A stretch of 37,895 nt of DNA from Acidobacteriota bacterium. Its GTDB lineage: Bacteria > Acidobacteriota > Terriglobia > Acidiferrales > UBA7541. The notes below the pieces were generated by a model, which was not told the DNA's origin, searched no databases, and worked only from the letters and a program-made list of their open reading frames with translations. Shown here one piece after another: positions 1 to 9,938 of this stretch. Made by a program: the position numbers and the translations under genes. The stretch covers positions 1 to 37,895 of the forward strand of contig QHYH01000134.1 in the NCBI GenBank assembly GCA_003223215.1, in the 5' to 3' direction. Within the stretch, counting starts at the first letter, position 1, and each line of letters begins with the position of its first letter.

Positions 1-1
1 C

Positions 2-1153
2 ACGGCTTCGATAACAATGGCGAACGCGCCGGGCGGGGGCCTGCGCTCCAACCCAGTTTACTTTCCGATTGCAATGCGCGAAGCGAACTTAGCGCTGGTG
101 CAGGCGGCCGGCTCGCCCTTCCCCTTGGGGGGCGTCCTCGGGGACATGGTCTCGGCGGACTTTAATGGTGACGGCATCCCCGACCTTGCTGTTGCCGGTG
201 CGTACGCCACCGCACCAGATATCAACATCCTTTTGGGCAAAGGGGACGGAACGTTCTCTACCGCAAACGGCTCCCCCATTCCCATGGTGGCCTCGCCGTT
301 TAGCGTGGGCGCGGGCGACTTCAACGGCGACGGAAAGATGGATCTGCTTACGACCAGCCAGTCCGCAAACTCAGCGGCGGTCTTCCTTGGCAACGGTGAC
401 GGCACGTTTACCCCTGCTGCGGGTAACCCGATCCCCGCGGGACAGAGCCCGAGCTACCTCGCGGTGGGAGACTTCAACGGCGATGGCAAGCTGGATGTAG
501 CAGTATCTAACCCTTACACCAACAGCCTCACTATCCTGCTGGGGAACGGCGATGGAACATTCACTCAGGCACCCAACCCACCCGCAGCGGCAACATATCC
601 AGCGACGGTCACCGTGGGAGACTTCAACGGCGACGGAAACCTAGATCTGGCGGTCACTGTTTCCCATCCCAGTGGAGTGGTCGTGCTGCTAGGCAATGGC
701 GACGGCACATTCACACCCGCGCAAAGCTCACCGATTCCTGTGGGTTTTTTTGCAACTGGCATTGTCGCGGCCGATTTCAACAACGACGGCAAGGCAGATT
801 TGGCTGTGAGCGATGGTATCGGAAACACCGTCAGCATCCTGCTCGGCAATGGAGATGGCACGTTCAAGGCCGCTTCAGGCTCGCCAGTCCCCGTGGGGCA
901 CGGACCCTTTACGGAGGTTCTGGGCGACTTCAACAGCGACGGCGAGCTTGATCTTGCCGTCGTGAACCTCAACGACAACACAGTAACTATCCTGTTCGGG
1001 AACGGAGATGGAACGTTCTCTGCAACAACATCCCCTGTAATCGTGAACCAGCCAGGTACGATGGTGACCGCAGATTTCAACGGCGACGGCCGGCTCGACT
1101 TCGCCATTGTCGACGGGTTTGACAATAAAGTCTACGTCGTCTTGCAGCAGTAA
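2..1153 (+). CDS. FG-GAP/VCBS repeat protein, 5' partial
   Basis: Seven consecutive repeats of about 45-55 residues are visible. Each has a calcium-loop core of the type DFNGDGxxDLAV followed 20-30 residues later by LLGNGDGTF. This is the FG-GAP/VCBS pattern that folds as blades of an integrin-alpha-like beta-propeller, and such proteins are normally secreted or surface-exposed in Acidobacteriota. The first ATG is at 17, but the frame is open back to the window edge, no signal peptide is present and no ribosome binding site precedes 17, so the true start probably lies outside. Blade five reads DFNNDG and blade six DFNSDG, mild variants that keep the Asp/Asn calcium ligands. The ligand or function cannot be told. 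The family call is secure. Confidence 0.9.
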   Translation, partial: TASITMANAPGGGLRSNPVYFPIAMREANLALVQAAGSPFPLGGVLGDMVSADFNGDGIPDLAVAGAYATAPDINILLGKGDGTFSTANGSPIPMVASPFSVGAGDFNGDGKMDLLTTSQSANSAAVFLGNGDGTFTPAAGNPIPAGQSPSYLAVGDFNGDGKLDVAVSNPYTNSLTILLGNGDGTFTQAPNPPAAATYPATVTVGDFNGDGNLDLAVTVSHPSGVVVLLGNGDGTFTPAQSSPIPVGFFATGIVAADFNNDGKADLAVSDGIGNTVSILLGNGDGTFKAASGSPVPVGHGPFTEVLGDFNSDGELDLAVVNLNDNTVTILFGNGDGTFSATTSPVIVNQPGTMVTADFNGDGRLDFAIVDGFDNKVYVVLQQ

Positions 1154-1193
1154 GATGGTGCATTCCCGACCATACGCGCAGACGCTCGCCGGG

Positions 1194-1232
1194 TGCCCAC
1201 CTTTTCGGGTTTGGTTTTTGAAAAGGTGGGCA
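1194..1232. repeat. Perfect 12-bp inverted repeat, REP-like or terminator hairpin
   Basis: Left arm TGCCCACCTTTT (1194-1205) and right arm AAAAGGTGGGCA (1221-1232) pair perfectly around a 15-nt loop. The element lies 40 nt after the stop of the FG-GAP gene. The bases after the right arm are only modestly T-rich (ATTTCTGTG), so it is not a textbook intrinsic terminator. Palindromes built on CCCACC...GGTGGG recur between genes in acidobacterial genomes (from memory), so a REP-like dispersed element is the alternative. Confidence 0.6.
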
Positions 1233-1474
1233 TTTCTGTGCCTGCGTCTTTTGTCCCTGAGTTTTGATCAGCCCCTCTATCCCGGAGCATCCAAACGACT
1301 TAATCCCCGATCCCAACATGGAACTCTTGACCCTCTTACAGCCATCCCTATCCCCTTTCCCATCAGTCACTTATTTGTTTATTCACTTAACAGTAATACA
1401 ATGCTATGATTTTGAATGGTTTTAATTTGCCGGAGACGAGGCGATCACGATTTGGGGAAGAACTCAACGTTGAG

Positions 1475-1633
1475 AAGATGAAGAAAGCAGTTTGGTTGAG
1501 GCCAGAGGCTGTTGCTCAGATTGAATTTCTAGAATGGACCGAGGGCGATAGGTTGCGACATTCGAAGTTTGTCGGCTTGCGCGAGGACAAGAATCCTCGA
1601 AGCGTGGTCAAGGAGGATGCTGGCGAAGGCTAA
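1475..1633 (+). pseudogene. C-terminal remnant of ATP-dependent DNA ligase (LigD-type)
   Basis: The short frame contains VWLRPEAVAQIEFLEWT followed by LRHSKFVGLREDKNPRSVV. This matches the end of the OB-fold domain of ATP-dependent DNA ligases of the LigD/LigC type, including the terminal LRHPxFxGLRxDKxP motif. Only about the last 50 residues survive. The nucleotidyltransferase domain with its KxDG lysine is absent, and the residues upstream (from ATG 1406) do not look like ligase. It is therefore a decayed or recombined scrap, not a working enzyme. It lies at the left side of an accessory island and may mark a junction. Confidence 0.7.
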
Positions 1634-1780
1634 TTGTCGGACATTACGCTGGGCGGTGAATACTGGATCGATGCCGCTTGCGTTTCCCAGAAACGAGTTT
1701 CGATCTCTGATCAAATCCCCCGGGGTTCGTACCGTCTTGTTACGTCAGAATATGTAAACACTGCAAGAACGAGCGTTATT

Positions 1781-1810
1781 TTGCGATACAGTCACTAATT
1801 CGAGTATACT
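1781..1810 (+). promoter_or_regulatory. Putative sigma70-type promoter of the patatin gene
   Basis: TTGCGA (1781-1786) and TATACT (1805-1810) are separated by 18 bp. The first plausible start codon of the patatin-like gene is at 1829, so transcription would begin roughly 10 nt before it. With no clear Shine-Dalgarno, translation may be from a very short leader. Prediction from sequence only. Confidence 0.45.
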
Positions 1811-1828
1811 GCGCGCCTGTCTTTGCAC

Positions 1829-3842
1829 ATGAGCACGAGCAGAAACACGCTGCCTAGTATGCAAGCGACGAATCCAAATGCGACTTCTAAGATCGGCCTA
1901 GCACTCTCGGGCGGCGGTTTTAGGGCGACCTTGTTTCATCTGGGTGTGGTAGCCGCGTTTCGACAACTTGGCCGGCTCAAAGAAGTCGGTGTAGTCTCCT
2001 GCGTGTCCGGTGGTAGCATCATCGGCGCACACCTCGTACTGAATTGGCACCGCTACATCAGTGTCGACGAAGCGATATTTGACCAGGCAGCGCGAGAACT
2101 CGTCGCAATTACTACTGCTGACGTTCGGGGCCAGATTATACGGAGATTGCCATTACCGCGGCACCGGCGATTTCAGCATTGTCTCGATCAGTTTCTCTAC
2201 TCGAACGCTCTGCTCACCGCTGTAGAGGGCGATGAAAAACCCATCCTTGTTCTAAATGTGACTGATCTCAAGCATGGCACTGCAGCGGCTTTCGTCGGCG
2301 GAGCCTTCCTACCTGATGTCAGAAAGCCCGAGCTGGACGACGGAACGTCCACAGCGATAGACTGTCGGCCCGTTTTCGCTCTCGAACGCTGTAGCGTGCT
2401 CAGCGGCATTTCCGGCATTGTTTCCAGAGCGGGCGCTGTCTGCGAAGGACTTCGCGCAGCCACGCAAGAAATGGGAAGCCGGAGCATCCCTCGCCGACGG
2501 GGGAGTCTACGACAATTTGGGAATCCAGTTTTTTTTGGGTTTAACAGGGAAGGTTCCTCCTCCAGCGTTCTACGTGTCCGATGCGGGGGCACCGTTCGAT
2601 TACGCAGCCGGTCTGAGCGGTAATGTCTTTAGCCGCGTCGCCCGTGTGACCGACGTGCAAATGGACCTTCTTCGGACGGCCTTCATTGAAGACGCAGCCG
2701 ATACATCGGTGCCGGTTCGACAAATATCGATTGCCGATGAACTGTTGAACCGTCAAGAATACAAGCGCGAGGATCTCTTAGACGGAATCCCTCCTCGCGA
2801 AATTGTCCGTCGGCTACAGCTTATCCGCACGGATTTGGACGAGTTCACTAAGTTGGAGATCGATCTTCTCATACGCCACGGTTACACTGTGGCGTACAAG
2901 GCGCTGACCGGCAGCCTTGCTCGCATACGAGACGTTAGATTCGTTTGGTCGGTAACTGAGCTTGGCCCGCCACTTAGTCCCGCGACAATTCAGGAACAAT
3001 CAACAGAACTAGAGAACTCCCAGAGACGGCGCTTGGGGCTGTTCAATCCGAAGGACCGAACCTTTCCCGTCCCATGGTTCCTAATTGCGTTCGTCCTTCT
3101 CTTTCTCTTTGCGACGCAGAAAGTACTGCGACCGTTCGTGTTCGAATCCATCCGCAGTCCCCGCGTCGATCAAGTACTTACCGGCCGACCGTACAGACTG
3201 ACGCGAGTAATGCGGTATGTTGTTCTGGAACCAGCCGCGGAAAGGGAAGGACATCAGGGTGTGCTCGCGACCAGTCGATTCTTTTATTGGACTAGGTTGA
3301 ACCAAAACATTACGCCGAAGGATTCCACGTTTACTGAGGTTCTTATTCCGACGTACGAGCGAAGTCCATCGGTCCACGGGTTGGGCGTCATAGGCGCAAA
3401 CGCGATTCGAGAGTCGGAAGGTACATTGCCTTTCGAGGACCGCCGGGAGCTTACGTTTCAGGGAGCGCGCGGAGACACGCTGTTGCTCGGAACAGGTGTT
3501 CAGTACGAATTCGATTGGCCGGGTCCGTTGCGAAACTTACAAAACATCGAATTCAGCAACGGCGAAGATTACTGGGCGTACGAGAACACATCCGACTACG
3601 TAGACCATCTCGTGATCGTAGTGGACTCTCGGTCAGACAAACTCCTAGTAACGCAGCCTTCCGATTGCGCCATTCTGTACCGCGCAAACCGGGCAATCGT
3701 GCGTTCCAAATGCAAAATAGGCGAAAACAATGGCTCGATGCGGCCAGGGTTATCGCTATACGGCGGTGCGCTAGTCGCAGAGTTCAATGACCTTAAGCCT
3801 GGCGACGAGGCCATCATCAAGTACAAACTCGCTTGGCACTAA
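1829..3842 (+). CDS. Patatin-like phospholipase with TM helix and C-terminal beta-rich domain, frameshifted
   Basis: The N-terminal part (frame of ATG 1829) carries the patatin oxyanion loop LSGGGFRA (residues 26-33) and the nucleophile elbow CVSGGS (Ser60). After about 180 residues the frame changes near 2370, at a TTTT run. The next frame resumes with SNAVACSAAFPALFP and the catalytic Asp motif ADGGVYDN, so the Ser-Asp dyad is complete only across the shift. A hydrophobic helix encoded at about 3074-3115 follows, then about 230 residues rich in predicted beta strands, with no family I recognise. Patatins hydrolyse acyl ester bonds of membrane lipids. Such a membrane-anchored layout suggests an effector or a secreted-side sensor, but this is inference. 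The downstream frame also has an internal ATG at 2418. Either one base is inserted (real or sequencing error) or the gene is dead. It is the first gene of the island. Confidence 0.8.
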
Positions 3843-3975
3843 ACGGGGTTCGCGGAGATCAGTGGTGATGAGTTACTGGTGAGCGTGGATGAGGACGTAT
3901 GAGTCACGATTGAATGGAGCTGCGACGTGCGCAACTTAATGCCTGAGGAAGCACTGCACGGCATTTACGCTCAGA

Positions 3976-4323
3976 ATGATGCTTCAAGAACTACGCTCCG
4001 GCCTACTCCGAAGAGTTGCCGGTGAAGCTGGTTTTGATTTGGGAATGATACCGGACGGCCTAACAGATGGTGGCATTCAACGAGCACCTATCTTGAGCGC
4101 TATAGATGGTCAGTGGAGCACTTTCGATGCTGCAAGAAAAGAACGCATGATTGGTTGGCTTGCAGAGGCCCTGTCGCGCCAACTGGGCAAAACCAATCCC
4201 CCGACTGACGGAGAAGTCGAAAGAGGAACTGCCATCATCAATGCCAGAATATTGAAGTACGGGTTCAAGTTCGAAAACGGTGGTTTTGTTCCCGTGAATG
4301 CGGTCGGTCAAATCCCTTCCTAA
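3976..4323 (+). CDS. Hypothetical protein, 115 aa
   Basis: The start could be either of two adjacent ATGs (3976 or 3979); no good Shine-Dalgarno precedes them. The protein has no signal peptide or membrane segment. It is mostly predicted helical, with a middle segment FDAARKERMIGWLAEALSRQL and a C-terminal tail ILKYGFKFENGGFVPVN. The tail resembles the short strand-turn ends of small N-terminal domains found in some phage-defence proteins, but the resemblance is too weak to name a family. It follows the patatin gene by 133 bp on the same strand and precedes the SGNH hydrolase by 209 bp, so co-transcription is possible. I do not recognise it. Confidence 0.5.
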   Translation: MMLQELRSGLLRRVAGEAGFDLGMIPDGLTDGGIQRAPILSAIDGQWSTFDAARKERMIGWLAEALSRQLGKTNPPTDGEVERGTAIINARILKYGFKFENGGFVPVNAVGQIPS

Positions 4324-4532
4324 ACGAGTCAATACCTAGCCGCCGAATTTGGTCGAGGTGCAGCCTTCTTAGTTCTGCTTGATGGGCTGAACCCCTGTTG
4401 TGAGATAGTTGGTCGTCTGTAAGGTCATTTCCCACAACCCCGTTTCCTGCCAACTTCCGGTTGGCCAACAATCCAACAAATATGCTTTATTCTCATAGCG
4501 GAATTCGTTAATCCACTCTATGTAGGAAACGC

Positions 4533-5315
4533 ATGATTAGCCCGGAAAAGCCCCCGGAGCCGATTGAACCGCCCCACGCCACGAGACAACAACCATCAAT
4601 CGTGGCATGTCTCGGTTCCAGTAGTACGGCAGGAAAAGGGCAAGCGTTCAACTGGATTATCGAACTGCAACGGAGACTCGGCGAAGGGCGCTTCGTATTT
4701 CGTAACTTCGGAGTGGGAGGCGATCTTGCGTATAATGCCCTCCAGCGCCTTACCGATGTAATAGCATCCTGCCCGAAAAAGATAGTGGTCTTCATCGGTG
4801 GAAATGATGTTCTGGCCTTGGTTTCTGCCAAGGCCAGAACTTTTTTTCGAATCTCTAAGCGGCTCCCGCGCGATCCATCACCCGAATGGTTCCGTGAAAA
4901 CCTTCAGACAATCGTACGGCGTGCGAAGGCTGAAACCTCACGCACCACGGGCCTCTGTTCGTTGCCTCCGATCGGAGAAGACCCAGCATCCACGAACCAC
5001 TTCCAGAGTGAACTCAACCGACGCATTGAAGAGTTCAGGGCCATCATCAGAGGAATTGTCCAAGAAGAGGGCACTGACTATATTCCCCTCCATGAGGCGA
5101 TGCTTGCGCAAATTATGAAATCATCGGGTCGCGCTTTCACGGAGTTTGCGTTTCTTCCGTTCTATCGTGATGCTTTTCGCACTCTGGTGTTGCGCAAGAG
5201 CCCTGACGAAGTCGCCCGGATCAATGGCTGGAGCTTTCACACGGACGGCGTCCACCTCAATAGCCGAAGTGGATTGATCGTTGCCGATCTTGTCCAAAAG
5301 TTCATCGAGAGATAA
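4533..5315 (+). CDS. SGNH/GDSL-family hydrolase
   Basis: A 260-aa protein with the four SGNH blocks: GSSST (residues 28-32; Ser30 is the expected nucleophile, with the usual GDS aspartate replaced by Ser29), the block II glycine in FGVGG, GGND (Asn91), and DGVHLN (Asp238 and His241). Family members are esterases or lipases acting on acyl or acetyl esters. No signal peptide is seen, so a cytoplasmic role is likely. The start ATG 4533 is preceded by AGGA at 4524-4527. A perfect terminator-like hairpin with a T7 tract lies inside the coding sequence just after the GGND codons. Together with the patatin gene it puts two lipid/ester hydrolases side by side in the island. The substrate is unknown. 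Confidence 0.85.
   Translation: MISPEKPPEPIEPPHATRQQPSIVACLGSSSTAGKGQAFNWIIELQRRLGEGRFVFRNFGVGGDLAYNALQRLTDVIASCPKKIVVFIGGNDVLALVSAKARTFFRISKRLPRDPSPEWFRENLQTIVRRAKAETSRTTGLCSLPPIGEDPASTNHFQSELNRRIEEFRAIIRGIVQEEGTDYIPLHEAMLAQIMKSSGRAFTEFAFLPFYRDAFRTLVLRKSPDEVARINGWSFHTDGVHLNSRSGLIVADLVQKFIER
4809..4847 (+). terminator. Intragenic intrinsic-terminator-like hairpin with T7 tract
   Basis: GTTCTGGCCTTGG (4809-4821) pairs perfectly with CCAAGGCCAGAAC (4828-4840) around a 6-nt loop, and seven T residues follow (4841-4847). By sequence this is a near-ideal Rho-independent terminator on the + strand. It lies inside the SGNH hydrolase open frame, within the codons for a plausible family-typical stretch after GGND. 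Whether it terminates transcription in a translated message is unknown; ribosomes following closely could suppress it. Confidence 0.6.
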
Positions 5316-5655
5316 GAGCGACCGCAGCCGAACCGACGGCGCAATCCTCATCTCGTAGCTCCCGTATCACGGGCAACCCTGAAGTTATGGCCAGGATGGA
5401 CTGGCGACTGCCGGCCACGCGGTCCGGAAGTCCCGTTCTATCTTTGCTGGATAGAACGACCCCTCCCAACGTCGTGAGATTTTGTGCTTGCCATACTACT
5501 ATATACATATTGTATGCTGAAAAAACCCTCTGAACCCTCTGACTGCTCCTTGCGAGTCTGTGGGCTCGCTGGTCATAAGTAAGGCGGTGCCGTGAGGCAG
5601 GGGACTTTTGCTACTCCGCGGCGGCAGACGACCGGGAATTTTGAGTTGGTGCCCA
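5316..5655. other. Intergenic region with an 8-bp inverted repeat
   Basis: No convincing gene is seen. GTTCTATC (5435-5442) pairs with GATAGAAC (5450-5457) around a 7-nt loop. No T-tract follows, so it is not a classical terminator. An AT-rich stretch with ATATACATATTGTATG (about 5501-5516) could hold a -10 element for the HTH gene downstream. Confidence 0.4.
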
Positions 5656-5901
5656 ATGCCAATCCAGAAGAGATTCAAGAAGCCTCCTGTAATTTCCACA
5701 TCTGCTTTGACTCCCATCGTAGGTCCTCGACTTTTAACACCTAAATCCGCCGCTGCATATCTCTCGATGTCTATCGACGTTGTCCGGGATATGATTCAGC
5801 ATCGCAGAATCCCCTACGTTCAGAATGGCAGGCGGTATTTGATCGACCGTCTAGACCTCGACCGCTACATTGAGAAGGCAAAAGTCGGGGATGCTGCGTG
5901 A
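5656..5901 (+). CDS. Excisionase-like helix-turn-helix DNA-binding protein
   Basis: An 81-aa protein from ATG 5656; an in-frame TTG at 5608 would add 16 unlikely residues. The core LLTPKSAAAYLSMSIDVVRD then IPYVQNGRRYLI and DLDRYIEK is the HTH_17/excisionase pattern: a MerR-like winged helix followed by a short strand and helix. Such proteins act as recombination directionality factors or transcription regulators of integrative elements. It lies convergent to the tRNA and tyrosine integrase that follow, which fits a role as Xis for that integrase. The family is fairly sure; the role is inferred from neighbours. Confidence 0.8.
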   Translation: MPIQKRFKKPPVISTSALTPIVGPRLLTPKSAAAYLSMSIDVVRDMIQHRRIPYVQNGRRYLIDRLDLDRYIEKAKVGDAA

Positions 5902-5911
5902 GGAAGAAGAT

Positions 5912-5988
5912 TGGTAGCCCGGACGGGAATCGAACCCGTAATCTTCACCTTGAAAGGGTGACGAGTTAACCAGTTACTCTACCGGGCC
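5912..5988 (-). tRNA. tRNA-Glu (anticodon UUC)
   Basis: The reverse strand folds as a complete cloverleaf. The acceptor strands GGCCCGG and CCGGGCU pair with a G1-U72 wobble. The D-stem is GAGT/ACTC. The anticodon stem TCACC/GGTGA encloses the loop CTTTCAA (anticodon TTC), and the T-stem ACGGG/CCCGT encloses TTCGATT. The discriminator A and CCA are encoded (5912-5914). Length is 74 nt plus CCA. Its 5' end is only 11 bp behind the stop codon of the tyrosine integrase on the same strand. Its promoter must therefore lie inside the integrase gene, or it is co-transcribed with it. Confidence 0.95.
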
Positions 5989-5999
5989 ACGCAAGCAGT

Positions 6000-7214
6000 T
6001 TATCGTGCGGCTGGCTTTTCAGCAATCGGTGTAACCGACGCCGGTTTGAACTGCCCGACTTTGATGAGGGCTGCTTTGACATCATCATTCACTTTGATGT
6101 TGTAGCGCTCGAAGATGTGTTCAGTTTTGTGGCCTGTGATTTTCATCGCAGTTCGCCGGTCAACCCCCGCGAGAGTCAGATTTCTCGCGCACGACCTACG
6201 AAAGTCGTGAGGTTTCAAACCTTCATAATGGCGCAGTTTCTTGTCAAATTTTCCCAGTCCCAATTTGTCACACACCTTATTCCAAGTAAACCTGAAATTG
6301 CGAAAGCAGAATACCTTGTCCGTGGGCTTCGGAAAGCCCTTTCGCAGCTTCTGTAATTCGTCTGCAACTGCGCTTAATGGACCGACCAACGGAACATTGT
6401 GAGGCGTCTTGTTTTTGATTACACGCCGAGGCATTTCAATCTCAGTGTTGTCGTTCGAAACCATGCTCCAAGTGATTTTTTGAGCAGCCCCAATGCGAAC
6501 GCCCGTGTAATACAGGAATGTTAGTGCCGGTCGCAAGTGCTCGGGGAAAGCATTTCGGAGGGTCTCGAAAGTGTCGGGCTCGATAAAACCTTCCCGTGGG
6601 TCTGAGTCCTTGGGAAGTTCAAAGGGCGGTACGTCGTTGCGGTTGATCTCCTCTTCCTTGAACGCACGGTTGAACGCCAAGCGCAGATGCCCGCGTTGAC
6701 GACGAATGGTCGCGTCAGCATCGCCTTCTTTGCGTCGCCACTGGATGTATGCCTTAATTTTTTGTACGCGAATTTCAGTGACCGGCAGACGTTTGAAGAA
6801 CGTGTCGAGCTTGTCCATGCCGAGGAAGCATTCTTCGATACCGCCGTTTTCGGTCTTCCGATGATAGAGGCTGGCTGGTCTATCTGTGCGGTAGTAATCC
6901 AGCAGGATACGCTTCAAGTCTTCGTAGCGAACCCGTCCGACCTCGGAGGGAAGAAGACGTTGGCCTTGCTCGACCAACCCCCGAGCTTCTAGTAGCTGCC
7001 GATACGCAGCCTCGGGATCATTCGTCTTTGTGTTGACGAACTTCTGTACCCCACCTTGGTAGAACGCGAAATACAGGAATTTGGAGGGTACTTTCTCCCC
7101 GGCGTCATTCTTTGAATACCGGTTCCCGATCCATCCCTCGCCCTTTTTGAGCCTCTCGTTGACAGCCGATATCTGAGTTGCATGCACGGATTCACTCACG
7201 GCGGTAAAGAACAA
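6000..7214 (-). CDS. Tyrosine recombinase / phage-type integrase
   Basis: A 404-aa protein with an N-terminal arm- and core-binding region and a C-terminal catalytic domain. The catalytic residues are visible: Arg in YYTGVRIGAAQ (about 240), Lys in KNKTPH, His336 and Arg339 in HDFRRS, His362 in ITGHKTEH, and the nucleophile Tyr371 in FERY. All are intact. The longest start is a TTG at 7214; GTG at 7199 is an alternative, and no clear Shine-Dalgarno decides. It would insert an element into a tRNA 3' end: a tRNA-Glu lies directly downstream and a tRNA-Glu 3' half lies about 330 bp upstream. The excisionase-like gene sits on the far side of the tRNA. Confidence 0.93.
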   Translation of the reverse strand: MFFTAVSESVHATQISAVNERLKKGEGWIGNRYSKNDAGEKVPSKFLYFAFYQGGVQKFVNTKTNDPEAAYRQLLEARGLVEQGQRLLPSEVGRVRYEDLKRILLDYYRTDRPASLYHRKTENGGIEECFLGMDKLDTFFKRLPVTEIRVQKIKAYIQWRRKEGDADATIRRQRGHLRLAFNRAFKEEEINRNDVPPFELPKDSDPREGFIEPDTFETLRNAFPEHLRPALTFLYYTGVRIGAAQKITWSMVSNDNTEIEMPRRVIKNKTPHNVPLVGPLSAVADELQKLRKGFPKPTDKVFCFRNFRFTWNKVCDKLGLGKFDKKLRHYEGLKPHDFRRSCARNLTLAGVDRRTAMKITGHKTEHIFERYNIKVNDDVKAALIKVGQFKPASVTPIAEKPAAR

Positions 7215-7424
7215 CTGGTCAGACAGGCGAGCGGATTGGACATAGTTTCGAGCTACACTGACGATGAAGTTTGTACCTTAGTGCGAGAGACGATGCTAAT
7301 CGCATTTCTCGCAGCCCTGCTCATTACTGAATTCTTGGGTTACGCCTCTGAGCATCAAAGCGCAATGGCAATGCTCAACGAGTACGGCAAACAAAGATTT
7401 GCTTTGGGGGCTATAGCTTGAGAA

Positions 7425-7446
7425 ATCTTGCACCAATCTTGCACCA
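7425..7446 (+). repeat. Tandem 11-bp direct repeat upstream of integrase
   Basis: ATCTTGCACCA occurs twice head-to-tail (7425-7435 and 7436-7446), followed by the related CGCACCA. Short repeated sites beside an integrase gene are commonly its arm-type binding sites. This role is inferred from position, not shown. Confidence 0.6.
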
Positions 7447-7465
7447 TTTGGGCACCGCACCAAAA

Positions 7466-7485
7466 TACAACAACTTACAACAACT
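7466..7485 (+). repeat. Tandem 10-bp direct repeat upstream of integrase
   Basis: TACAACAACT occurs twice head-to-tail (7466-7475 and 7476-7485), 20 bp beyond the 11-bp pair and about 60 bp before the tRNA remnant. It is a second candidate arm-type or Xis-binding site. Confidence 0.6.
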
Positions 7486-7541
7486 CGGGAAATCTGGAAT
7501 CGTCAAAACCCCAATAAATCCGCGGTTTTTGAGAATTATCT

Positions 7542-7590
7542 TGTCCCTTTCAAGGCCGAAATACGGGTTCGATTCCCGTTAGCGCTACCA
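7542..7590 (+). other. 3' half of a second tRNA-Glu (att-site remnant)
   Basis: From the 5' side this stretch reads: a damaged anticodon stem, the intact anticodon loop CTTTCAA, a shortened variable region, and T-stem/loop ACGGG-TTCGATT-CCCGT identical to the intact tRNA-Glu. An acceptor strand TAGCGCT and ACCA follow. There is no 5' half upstream, so it is not a gene. Its acceptor strand differs from that of the tRNA at 5912-5988, so it derives from another tRNA-Glu gene. It is oriented on the + strand, opposite to that tRNA. The simplest reading is the attR/attL end of an element integrated in a tRNA-Glu. Confidence 0.75.
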
Positions 7591-7719
7591 AAAAACCAAC
7601 AAAAGCGAGGGCAATTCCGCTCTTGTTGCCCGCACTGTTGCCCAACTCCAAAACTGGGGATGAGGCTCCGCCCGCCTCAGTATTAAGCAAACTGAAGGTT
7701 GACCAGTAGAAGAGGGGCT

Positions 7720-8372
7720 TCATGATGCTTCGCCAGCTGATACTCTCCTGAGTTCGGCGACCATCCGTTTGAGTTCTTCCACGATCCGCCAGTTCCGGCA
7801 CCGTTCTTCGTAAACCTTGATGAGCTCGTCGAAGTACCAAAGTTGCTGGTCGCGCCCTCTCTTGAACCGCTTCCAGATCTCCGCTCCGACCTCCCTGTAA
7901 TCCTCAAGGATTGCGCGGGCGTTGTACGGCTTGTCTGCTGCTGAGACGAGCAGCGTTCCTTCCGACTCGTCAGGTTCCTCGCGCAGCCGCTTAATGTACG
8001 CTTCCTTCCGCACTCCCCATTCCTGTTTCTTGTCGCTGTCAACTTCGGACCTATCGGTGCAGCGCCCTTCACAATTTTGGCTACATCTTTGCCAAACTTC
8101 GCTTCAATATCTTGCAGCCGGGGCAGGCCACCCTCGTCCTCCACGGCGTCATGCAGGAGCGCCGCGATTACCATGTCTTCCGTCACCGCAAAGGGAACGT
8201 GGCCGCTCTCTCCCATCACCAGCGAAGCAACTCCGAGCAGATGGGCCATATAGGGCACGTGCGTCCCTTTGCGCCAGCCAGTGTGTATCTGCCGTGCATA
8301 ATCCACGGCCTGAATGAAGCGGCGTGTAAGAACGAATGCTCTATGCTCTTCTTTGGTGCTCATGGACTTCAT
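7720..8372 (-). CDS. HD-domain (RelA/SpoT-like) phosphohydrolase, frameshifted
   Basis: The first frame has FVLTRRFIQAVDYARQIH, PYMAHLLGVASLV and IAALLHDAVEDEGG, the H...HD...D metal-binding pattern of small HD-domain proteins related to the (p)ppGpp hydrolase half of RelA/SpoT. It breaks after KIVKG. The next frame continues with CTDRSEV, DKKQEWGVRKEAYI and LLVSAADKPYNARAIL, as expected for the family. The disruption looks like two extra bases (GC) in GGGCGCTGC near 8055. Family members hydrolyse nucleotide phosphates; the exact substrate is unknown. It is one frame change from intact, so either a young pseudogene or a sequence error. Confidence 0.8.
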
Positions 8373-8398
8373 TCTCCAGAGCTACGGGAATCGCATGG

Positions 8399-8650
8399 TC
8401 AAGCGTGCATCACGGACCTGCCGCAACGCGAACAGATATTCGTCGCGGGAACCGCGTGCCCGTTCATGCAGCGCCGGACATTTGCGTTTGCCTTCGCTGC
8501 GGAGTAAAGAATCACGAGAGTGCCGGCGTAAAACGCCATCCAGTGGCCTGAGAATCCTCTGGGAGACGCTGGCGGATTTGCGCCCCCTCGAACCACGGCC
8601 AAGTGCTCAGGCCAGTCCAGCGGAATGGATTTCCTGAAATCATTCGTCAC
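8399..8650 (-). CDS. Small protein with C-terminal zinc ribbon
   Basis: An 83-aa frame with a GTG start at 8650 and no clear Shine-Dalgarno. A short hydrophobic stretch around YAGTLVILY is followed by CMNGHAVPATNICSRCG, a Cys/His plus CxxC pattern typical of short zinc ribbons. It is transcribed in the same direction as, and 26 bp upstream of, the HD-domain gene, and divergently from the HExxH gene. The zinc-ribbon motif argues that the frame is real, but the composition of the N-terminal half is not strongly protein-like. Confidence 0.45.
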   Translation of the reverse strand: MTNDFRKSIPLDWPEHLAVVRGGANPPASPRGFSGHWMAFYAGTLVILYSAAKANANVRRCMNGHAVPATNICSRCGRSVMHA

Positions 8651-8671
8651 ATCTTAAAGGAACCGATCAGC

Positions 8672-9258
8672 ATGAACGAAAAGGAATTGCGTATGATAGT
8701 CCAAAAAAAGATGCGGTTACCAACACTCAACACCCTCAAATTCAATGGATTGTTCAGCAAGTCCAGACGCACATCGGACAGCAGCGCCAGACCTACCGGC
8801 CCGGCGCAGCGCCTCTCGACTTGGGCCAGAAGGACGGCATGCGCTCCTTCTTTCCGGAGGCTGCTCTCGATCCGGCGCGGCTCGTTGTCCTCGCCGGGAA
8901 GTACGTGAACAATCCGCCGCTCTACAGCAAACTCATGAAGCTGGGTTTCGAAGCAGCCTCTTTGCCGGATTTCGCGCATATGGCCGCCATCACTTTCGCG
9001 GACACGGTGGTCTCCCACCAGCCATTCACCGACAGGCTCCTGTTCCACGAACTCGTCCACGTCGTCCAGTACCAGAAGCTCTGTTTGTCACAATTCTCCG
9101 CCCAGTACGTTAAAGGCTTCCTGAACGGCGGCAGCTATGAAGCCAGTCCGCTGGAAATGAATGCTTACGAACTGGAGGCCCGGTATGCCGCCGAGCCCGC
9201 GAAACTTTTTTCGGTTGCGGACCAGGTTCAGAGATGGATTGCCGAAAACAGGTTCTGA
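8672..9258 (+). CDS. Putative HExxH metalloprotease-like protein with a frame change
   Basis: ATG 8672 follows AAAGGA at 8657. The first 13 codons run in one frame to an A7 tract, then the main frame continues (QIQWIVQQVQTHIGQQRQTY onwards) to 9258. Without a shift the main frame has its first GTG/ATG-type start only at 8821. The body contains FHELVHVVQYQ, a gluzincin HExxH zinc site, and ELEARYAAEP, where Glu residues could be the third ligand. This resembles short DUF4157-like or basic-secretory-protein-like metallopeptidase domains. No signal peptide is visible. The frame change falls exactly at a canonical A_AAA_AAG heptamer. Function is not known. Confidence 0.6.
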
Positions 9259-9425
9259 AGGAAGGGCACTTGAGCTTCGAGTTAGGTAGACAATCCCGTC
9301 AGCGCTAGCAAGTTCTGACCGTTACCGTTACATCTCTTCACCGTCGGTAAGACGACGCGTCCGGTTATAATTTCACGGCAGCCCCGTGCGTCTGAGAACG
9401 GCGCCAGCCCTCTCAAGGAGTTTCT

Positions 9426-9938
9426 TTGAGCTACGTCGAACAGCACCTTATCCCGGGCGAGTCCATTCAGTACCAAACCAAGCTGCACTGGATTGTCATG
9501 GCAGGCCACACGGTCATCGCTATTCTGCTTGCGTTACTGGCCATCGCGATTCCAACTGTCTGGGCTTCCTTCGCGAGCAAAGTGAAAGGCCACTCCATTC
9601 CTGGAGCGGTTTATTTTGGTGCACTGGTGTGTGTTGTGGCCGCTGGCGCATTGTTTTTCATTGGCATTTTGAGGCGCAATGCCACGGAGATGGCCGTGAC
9701 CAGCAAGAGGGTGATCGTCAAAACGGGCATCGCCGAGCGCCGAACCGTGGAAATCCTTCTTTCACGGATTGAAAGCGTGGCCGTGGATGAGCCCGCCTTG
9801 GGGCGGTTGCTGGGCTACGGCACGGTGATCGTGCGTGGCACAGGAGGAACTCCCGAGACGTTCGAAAAGATTTATCACCCGCTGGAATTCCGGGAGCAGG
9901 TGCAGCGTCAGATTGCCGGATGGGCGAAGCCCGCTTGA
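9426..9938 (+). CDS. PH-domain (bPH2/YdbT-like) membrane protein
   Basis: A 170-aa protein with a TTG start at 9426, supported by AAGGAG at 9414-9419. Two hydrophobic segments (about residues 24-48 and 60-82) precede a bacterial PH-like domain. That domain has TEMAVTSKRVIVKTGIAERR, the hallmark strand pattern of the family, then LSRIESVAVDEPALGRLLGYG and an FREQVQRQI tail. Such proteins are inner-membrane proteins of uncertain role. It stands alone, transcribed rightward. Confidence 0.85.
   Translation: MSYVEQHLIPGESIQYQTKLHWIVMAGHTVIAILLALLAIAIPTVWASFASKVKGHSIPGAVYFGALVCVVAAGALFFIGILRRNATEMAVTSKRVIVKTGIAERRTVEILLSRIESVAVDEPALGRLLGYGTVIVRGTGGTPETFEKIYHPLEFREQVQRQIAGWAKPA

What the first reader, a model, noticed from the sequence alone, without database searches (positions are those of the whole stretch)
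5912..7590. tRNA-Glu(UUC) and a tRNA-Glu 3' half in inverted orientation flanking an integrase
The intact tRNA-Glu is on the minus strand at 5912-5988; the fragment with an identical T-arm and anticodon loop is on the plus strand at 7542-7590. Normal tRNA-integrated elements leave direct repeats. The fragment's acceptor strand (TAGCGCT) differs from the intact tRNA's (CCGGGCT), so the fragment came from another tRNA-Glu gene. Either the intact tRNA is cargo of the element, or an integrase-mediated inversion happened.
Basis: partly seen in the sequence, partly recalled or inferred. Interest (0 to 1): 0.6.

Follow-up and report, generated by a model that had tools for sequence, protein, structure and literature searches.

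The report
Mobile element swapping a bacterium's tRNA
A mobile DNA element has cut a soil bacterium's glutamate tRNA gene in two at the anticodon and carries a complete foreign glutamate tRNA beside its integrase, apparently to keep the cell alive: a trick known from some phages, here repeated across one genus.

Summary
An intact tRNA-Glu(UUC) (5912-5988, minus) and the 3' half of a different tRNA-Glu(UUC) (7545-7590, plus) flank a tyrosine integrase. The fragment is identical (46/46) to positions 30-75 of a native tRNA-Glu(UUC) of the genus. The missing 5' half lies on another contig of the same assembly (C98:84736-84775). The halves overlap only by CCCTTTCAAGG (the anticodon loop) and together match the native gene at 74 of 75 positions. 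No intact native copy was found in the genome. So an element split the host gene without rebuilding it and brought a complete replacement in an xis-tRNA-int cassette: the cargo reading, not inversion. The same genome shows a second such event, its tRNA-Glu(CUC) split and replaced. Relatives show the same architecture (G002, G009, G017, G022), decayed stages (G003, G011, G018) and a conventional restoring arrangement at the same site (G007). This is the published 'tRNA-dependent lysogeny' logic (Guerrero-Bustamante and Hatfull 2024), here in acidobacterial elements with no phage structural gene among those I scanned. Expression, charging and mobility are inferred, and the element's middle is unassembled.

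The parts
1..5544 (.). left part of the element as held on this contig (FG-GAP repeat protein, patatin-like gene, GDSL lipase); the contig starts inside the element
   Evidence: inferred: everything between the 5' half on C98 and the 3' half at 7545 is element; Pfam
5608..5901 (+). excisionase-like helix-turn-helix gene (HTH_17)
   Evidence: PF12728 E 1e-10; tblastn finds a 44% relative in the same place beside the cargo tRNA in G011, and one about 0.4 kb from it in G002; the excisionase role is inferred
5912..5988 (-). cargo tRNA-Glu(UUC), complete; the only intact tRNA-Glu(UUC) found in the genome
6000..7214 (-). tyrosine integrase, ends 11 nt before the cargo tRNA
   Evidence: PF00589; R240, H336, H362, Y371 invariant in the alignment of six; their catalytic role is recalled
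7428..7445 (+). two TTGCACC repeats, 11 nt start to start, candidate arm-type integrase sites
   Evidence: TTGCACC has 3 hits in the window with both strands searched; same pair near the other split tRNA of this genome (C40, L218:2616 and 2627)
7545..7555 (+). attachment core CCCTTTCAAGG (anticodon loop)
   Evidence: the only sequence shared by the two half-gene junctions
7545..7590 (+). 3' half of the host's native tRNA-Glu(UUC)
   Evidence: 46/46 identical to positions 30-75 of a native gene
7591..9938 (.). host flank: HD-domain gene 7683-8372 (-), PH-like membrane protein gene 9426-9938 (+)
   Evidence: relatives of the PH-like gene lie just downstream of the intact native tRNA in the genus

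Best explanation
A tyrosine-integrase element integrated into the anticodon loop of the host's only tRNA-Glu(UUC) gene using an 11-bp core. This is too short to rebuild the tRNA, so the host gene is left in two halves (5' half on contig C98, 3' half at window 7545-7590). The element carries a complete, differently sequenced tRNA-Glu(UUC) between its integrase and its excisionase-like gene, which takes over the reading of GAA (and GAG) codons. Shown: split gene, shared core, flanks, no other intact copy found, complete cargo tRNA, recurrence. Inferred: that the cargo is transcribed, charged and needed for survival, and that the element can still excise.
For: Fragment = native tRNA positions 30-75, 46/46. 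The 5' half was found once in the genome at up to 3 mismatches, followed by unrelated DNA. The joined halves match the native gene at 74/75 and are called tRNA-Glu(ttc) by ARAGORN. The 5' half follows hscA-fdx-iscX on C98 and the PH-like gene lies beyond the 3' half; in relatives the intact gene sits between iscX and the PH-like gene. The whole-genome tRNA search gave no other Glu(UUC) among its 50 matches; the DNA search gave only cargo and fragment. Second event in the same genome: native tRNA-Glu(CUC) split into C98:14523-14561 and C40:2726-2773, joined 73/75, native neighbours on the two contigs, with a broken integrase and a different complete tRNA-Glu(CUC) beside the 5' half. G017 holds both CUC halves and the cassette in one contig, about 9.3 kb apart (joined 71/75). 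Same architecture in G002, G009, G022. In the seven cassettes with a leftover host half (window, G022, G000-CUC, G002, G009, G017, G018-CUC) the cargo is the isoacceptor of the gene whose half is left (two of the seven with a reservation, see against).
Against: The assembly is fragmented (279 contigs): C98 and C271 are not joined and the element's middle is missing. In the window the PH-like gene is 1.8 kb from the fragment with an HD gene between, not about 0.1 kb as in relatives; at the CUC site the native neighbours stand about 4 and 2.4 kb from the halves, farther than in G014. The tRNA covariance search scored 150 of 328 candidates. The consensus scan found no promoter for the cargo tRNA. 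The G009 leftover half carries a changed anticodon loop (CCCTATCAAGG), so its identity rests on 98% similarity. The G018-CUC remnant is 22 exact nt ending inside the anticodon (34 nt at 85%), and its flanks gave no match to the native CUC site. In G022 no 5' half was found. No expression data.
Confidence: 0.88

Rival explanations
1. A conventional tRNA-restoring element was followed by an integrase-mediated inversion between the two anticodon-loop cores, turning the tRNA round.
For: Cargo tRNA and fragment share the core CCCTTTCAAGG in opposite orientation, so such an inversion is possible in principle. G007 has a restoring arrangement at this site.
Against: Undoing such an inversion would join the cargo's 5' half (GGCCCGG) to the host's 3' half (TAGCGCT), which do not pair. 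The cargo halves match each other and the whole tRNA is 77/77 identical in G003 and G018. Both host halves are accounted for without it.
Confidence: 0.04
2. The fragment is an old relic or an assembly artefact, and the real native tRNA-Glu(UUC) lies in an unassembled gap.
For: Draft assembly, 97.65% complete, 279 contigs; tRNA fragments are common in this genus.
Against: Each half was found once, keeps native neighbours and the two share only the core. The 3' half has no decay. The CUC gene of this genome, and of G017, is split in the same way.
Confidence: 0.05
3. The tRNA next to the integrase is just the host tRNA at the end of an ordinary island whose attachment site rebuilds the 5' half; integrase next to tRNA means nothing special.
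For: Likely for other members of this integrase family: tRNA-Lys(UUU) beside an integrase in this genome is the native gene (100% over its whole length in 21 of 36 genus genomes); G059 tRNA-Val(CAC) has a 41-nt identical 5'-half direct repeat.
Against: Not for tRNA-Glu here: the tRNA is inverted relative to the host gene, has a different sequence, and both host halves are left over.
Confidence: 0.03

Closest known systems
tRNA-dependent lysogeny of actinobacteriophages (Fionnbharth, Gaia and others; PMC10865867: abstract, passages and section 10 read)
   Same: Tyrosine integrase, attB in a tRNA gene, 8-17 bp common core, no tRNA rebuilt, same-isotype tRNA carried by the element; Gaia has its tRNA downstream of int and an inverted attP.
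   Different: Here tRNA-Glu (UUC and CUC) in acidobacterial chromosomes; the tRNA lies between an excisionase-like gene and int; phage nature not shown; decayed elements remain with the foreign tRNA as the only copy found.
tRNA substitution by phage-related sequences in Sinorhizobium meliloti (PMC11476347, passages read)
   Same: A tRNA gene inactivated by integration is replaced by an isoacceptor gene carried by the element, similar to genes of unrelated bacteria.
   Different: Other phylum; the passages I read do not describe the split halves or repeated displacement across a genus. A later paper, PMC12429752 (passages), did not find it in phiLM21-like prophages.
Conventional tRNA-targeted genomic islands (Islander, PMC4383910: only the start of its abstract in listings)
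   Same: Tyrosine integrase, tRNA target, displaced fragment marks the end.
   Different: They regenerate the target from island sequence; here the core is 11 bp and nothing is regenerated. G007 looks like a conventional case at the same site.

Membership tests
tRNA-dependent lysogeny | tyrosine-family integrase next to the attachment site | tested here: met
   PF00589, open frame of 404 aa, about 330 nt from the core
tRNA-dependent lysogeny | attB within a host tRNA gene, common core only about 10 bp, tRNA not rebuilt at either end | tested here: met
   11-bp core; each junction holds only half a tRNA
[quoted passage not shown]
   cargo UUC, host UUC; CUC with CUC in the second event
tRNA-dependent lysogeny | broken host tRNA is the only copy | tested here: met
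   within the limits of a 97.65% complete draft
tRNA-dependent lysogeny | element is a temperate phage | tested here: inconclusive
   no phage structural family at E 0.001 among the longer ORFs scanned with Pfam from C98, the window's left part and the G017 element, but shorter ORFs were not scanned and the middle of the element is unassembled; no exact match of a 27-nt piece of the cargo in viral contigs
tRNA-dependent lysogeny | cargo tRNA is required for survival after integration | not testable with these tools
   needs a cultured host and a deletion
conventional tRNA-restoring island | target tRNA regenerated from island sequence, direct repeat with the fragment | tested here: not met
   intact tRNA is inverted and of different sequence

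The most novel reading that the evidence does not exclude
In this acidobacterial genus the essential tRNA-Glu genes are repeatedly displaced by element-borne, phage-like tRNA-Glu genes: elements split the native gene, substitute their own, then decay, leaving the host permanently dependent on a foreign tRNA that can itself become the next target. The cargo may be kept in inverted orientation because a direct one with the same core could be deleted by the element's own integrase.
Probability: 0.45. Interest if true: 0.62.

Novelty: new member of a known kind. Interest (0 to 1): 0.47.

Why it matters
It extends a trick published for actinobacterial phages to another phylum, in elements not shown to be phages. 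It shows the process in stages: fresh insertion (window), decayed element with the foreign tRNA as the only copy found (G018, and the incomplete G003), and both glutamate tRNAs replaced in one genome. If general, supposedly conserved tRNA genes can be swapped by mobile DNA, which matters for tRNA-based phylogeny, for finding island ends (search for split tRNAs, not only direct repeats), and for how elements make themselves indispensable.

Tried and rejected
Integrase next to a complete tRNA as sufficient proof of cargo: rejected. Of the 30 integrase loci L126-L155, 22 have a complete tRNA on the same strand within 75 nt downstream and 8 do not, but the tRNA-Lys(UUU) case is native and the Val(CAC) case in G059 looks like a 5'-half-restoring element. 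Only cases with leftover host halves of a different tRNA sequence were counted.

Phage origin by similarity: the integrase as a single query had no confirmed relative in viral contigs. As an alignment it gave 156 relatives, best 80 kept, all distant: 21 of 80 had a detectable tRNA 3' half near int (as a conventional attP would), 3 of 80 a complete tRNA downstream on the same strand, and 13 of 80 a complete tRNA near int on the other strand, which I did not follow up. Phage records: 11 with distant integrases. The one scan of the genome-contig collection gave 13 loci, of which three are genomes already seen.

Promoter for the cargo tRNA: I first thought of TTGCTG-17-TAAACT at the end of int (note); the scan did not support it and I do not claim it.

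Trans-joining of the two half tRNAs into a working tRNA: considered; the only datum is that the 3' half region does not fold better than shuffles (z 0.23).

Rows left out of the count of seven cassettes: G082 (cargo-type tRNA at the native site of another genus, no halves found); G014 (3' half of a cargo-type tRNA plus a decayed tRNA); G011 (native site, xis and int remnants, no host half); G003 and G018 at UUC (decayed host 3' half, no int); G007 C248 (3' half and int at a contig end, gene intact on C336); G013 C750 (3' half and int, no tRNA in the stretch read); G035 (cargo-type CUC tRNA, no half or int in 19 kb).

Literature; listings were cut (15 of 18, 15 of 46, 10 of 51 papers shown). 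The one paper on Acidobacteriota viruses listed (PMC11924767, passages) speaks of tRNA genes and integrases but, in the passages seen, not of this.

Full report
What is there. The window is the whole contig C271 of an 8.8-Mb draft genome (279 contigs, 97.65% complete). Three contigs of its genus have the same lengths as records titled Acidobacteria, two of them isolates labelled gp2 (the identification is inferred). From left to right: an excisionase-like gene (5608-5901, plus; HTH_17), a complete tRNA-Glu(UUC) (5912-5988, minus), a tyrosine integrase (6000-7214, minus), two TTGCACC repeats (7428, 7439), and a tRNA 3' half (7545-7590, plus).

The fragment. Most native tRNA-Glu(UUC) genes of the genus that I read end in TAGCGCTACCA like the fragment. 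One native form, identical in nine genomes (G004, G006, G007, G008, G014, G024, G025, G032, G034), matches the fragment exactly over positions 30-75. A search for the native 5' part with up to 3 mismatches found one place in this genome, C98:84736. There the tRNA runs to CCCTTTCAAGG and then changes to unrelated DNA. Joined at this core, the halves differ from that native gene at 1 of 75 positions and ARAGORN calls tRNA-Glu(ttc). The anticodon stem halves CGGCC (C98) and GGCCG (window) pair. The two junctions share only 11 bp.

The site. In relatives the gene stands between hscA-fdx-iscX and a PH-like gene, commonly followed by BI-1 and HD genes. In this genome the 5' half follows hscA-fdx-iscX on C98 and the PH-like gene is beyond the 3' half in the window, 1.8 kb away with an HD gene between. 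If C98 and C271 are the two ends of one insertion, element DNA includes at least 6.1 kb on C98 and 7.5 kb on C271; the middle is not assembled.

The replacement. The window's intact tRNA differs from the native one in acceptor stem and D arm and has a 5-nt variable loop. It is 77/77 identical to tRNAs of G003 and G018, one base (the first of the anticodon) from a tRNA-Glu(CUC) in G035, and 94% like one in G082. In a sample of 399 genomes of the class, 10 had a match at E 1e-15, this genome included; nine are of the same genus and one of these, G014, has only a half and a decayed copy. By blastn at E 1e-5 it resembles DNA of 65 phage records, none covering 80% of it, whereas the native tRNA resembles one. 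Of the ten phage rows shown, eight carry a tRNA-Glu annotation and two none. So the cargo looks phage-like, though its source is unknown. No other Glu(UUC) was found in this genome.

Recurrence. The native tRNA-Glu(CUC) of this genome is also split: 5' half at C98:14523-14561, 3' half at C40:2726-2773, joined 73/75, with genes that flank the native CUC gene in G014 on the two contigs, though farther off (about 4 and 2.4 kb). A broken integrase and a different complete tRNA-Glu(CUC) stand beside the 5' half. In G017 both CUC halves lie in one contig about 9.3 kb apart, with integrase and cargo tRNA-Glu(CUC) at one end. G002 and G009 have the 3' half, integrase and cargo, next to the native downstream gene. 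G022 has, at the UUC site, a native-looking tRNA in inverted orientation, a decayed integrase and a 3' half; no 5' half was found. G018 has a complete tRNA-Glu(CUC) of another type, integrase remnants and a remnant of the native CUC 5' half; its flanks did not match the native CUC site. G011 has at the UUC site the excisionase-like gene, cargo tRNA and a decayed integrase but no host half. G003 and G018 have beside the UUC-site genes the cargo tRNA, no integrase hit and a decayed host 3' half (85% and 89%).

Counts. Of the 36 genus genomes searched, I read the Glu(UUC) gene in 29: 5 replaced (G000, G003, G011, G018, G022), 1 with a damaged 5' part (G012), 23 native-type and apparently intact. 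The other seven (G005, G021, G027-G031) were not read. In the seven cassettes with a leftover host half and an integrase or its remnant, cargo and host isoacceptor agree (7 of 7). In G009 the half's anticodon is mutated and in G018 the remnant ends inside it, so those two rest on similarity.

Controls. G007 carries at the same site what looks like a conventional restoring arrangement, on two contigs: intact native tRNA next to iscX, and a 3' half before the PH-like gene. tRNA-Lys(UUU) beside an integrase in this genome is the native gene, found at 100% over its full length in 21 of 36 genomes. Of 30 integrase loci, 22 have a tRNA close downstream. So tRNA next to integrase alone proves nothing.

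Mechanism. Shown by sequence: split gene, core, flanks, cargo, recurrence. Inferred: integrase crossover in the anticodon loop, expression and charging of the cargo, dependence of the cell on it, excision restoring the native gene. Two elements of this genome share paired TTGCACC repeats 11 nt apart, 117 and 112 nt before the core, plausible arm sites; G009 has a similar inverted pair, and the same search found none in the stretches of G002, G017, G022 and G007. In the inverted cassettes (window, G002, G009, G011, G017, G022, G018-CUC) the cargo keeps the core motif; in the direct one with an integrase remnant (G000-CUC) it does not; in G018-UUC the cargo is direct and keeps the core but no integrase is left. 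This fits the idea that inverted orientation protects against self-deletion, on few cases.

Known or new. The features of tRNA-dependent lysogeny (PMC10865867) that can be tested by sequence are met, except that phage nature is undecided. PMC11476347 (passages) reports substitution of a tRNA by an element-borne isoacceptor in S. meliloti. My searches showed no title reporting it in Acidobacteriota, in a library that lacks most subscription journals and with some listings cut. I rate it a new member of a known kind, with an instructive evolutionary series.

Noticed in passing
G012 (L235:1985-2062): The tRNA-Glu(UUC) gene at the native site has a normal 3' part but an aberrant 5' end, with about 0.6 kb between iscX and the tRNA: perhaps another insertion, crossing in the D arm.
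   Followed up: no
G014 (L100:2037-2088 and 2825-2898): A 3' half identical to the cargo-type tRNA (47 nt) and a decayed cargo-like tRNA on one small contig, while the native gene is intact elsewhere: a cargo-type tRNA seems to have been a target itself.
   Followed up: partly
G000:C47 (L112:2330-2404 and 4806-4831): tRNA-Lys(UUU) has an integrase directly upstream and a 26-nt direct repeat of its 3' end 2.4 kb downstream; in the genus this gene has many 5' and 3' fragments, a hot spot for islands.
   Followed up: partly
G059 (L142:284-359 and 2452-2492): tRNA-Val(CAC) with a 41-nt identical 5'-half direct repeat around an integrase: probably an element that restores the 5' half, the mirror of the usual arrangement.
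   Followed up: partly
genus-wide tRNA-Glu(CUC), loci L187-L230: tRNA-Glu(CUC) exists in several distinct sequence types within one genus, as if displaced repeatedly; G035's copy is the cargo type with no element found nearby.
   Followed up: partly
L237-L316 (viral contigs): 13 of 80 viral integrase loci have a complete tRNA near int on the opposite strand; whether these are proviral ends or carried tRNAs was not resolved.
   Followed up: no
G054 (L138:2657-2755): A tRNA-SeC(UCA) call directly downstream of an integrase of this family.
   Followed up: no
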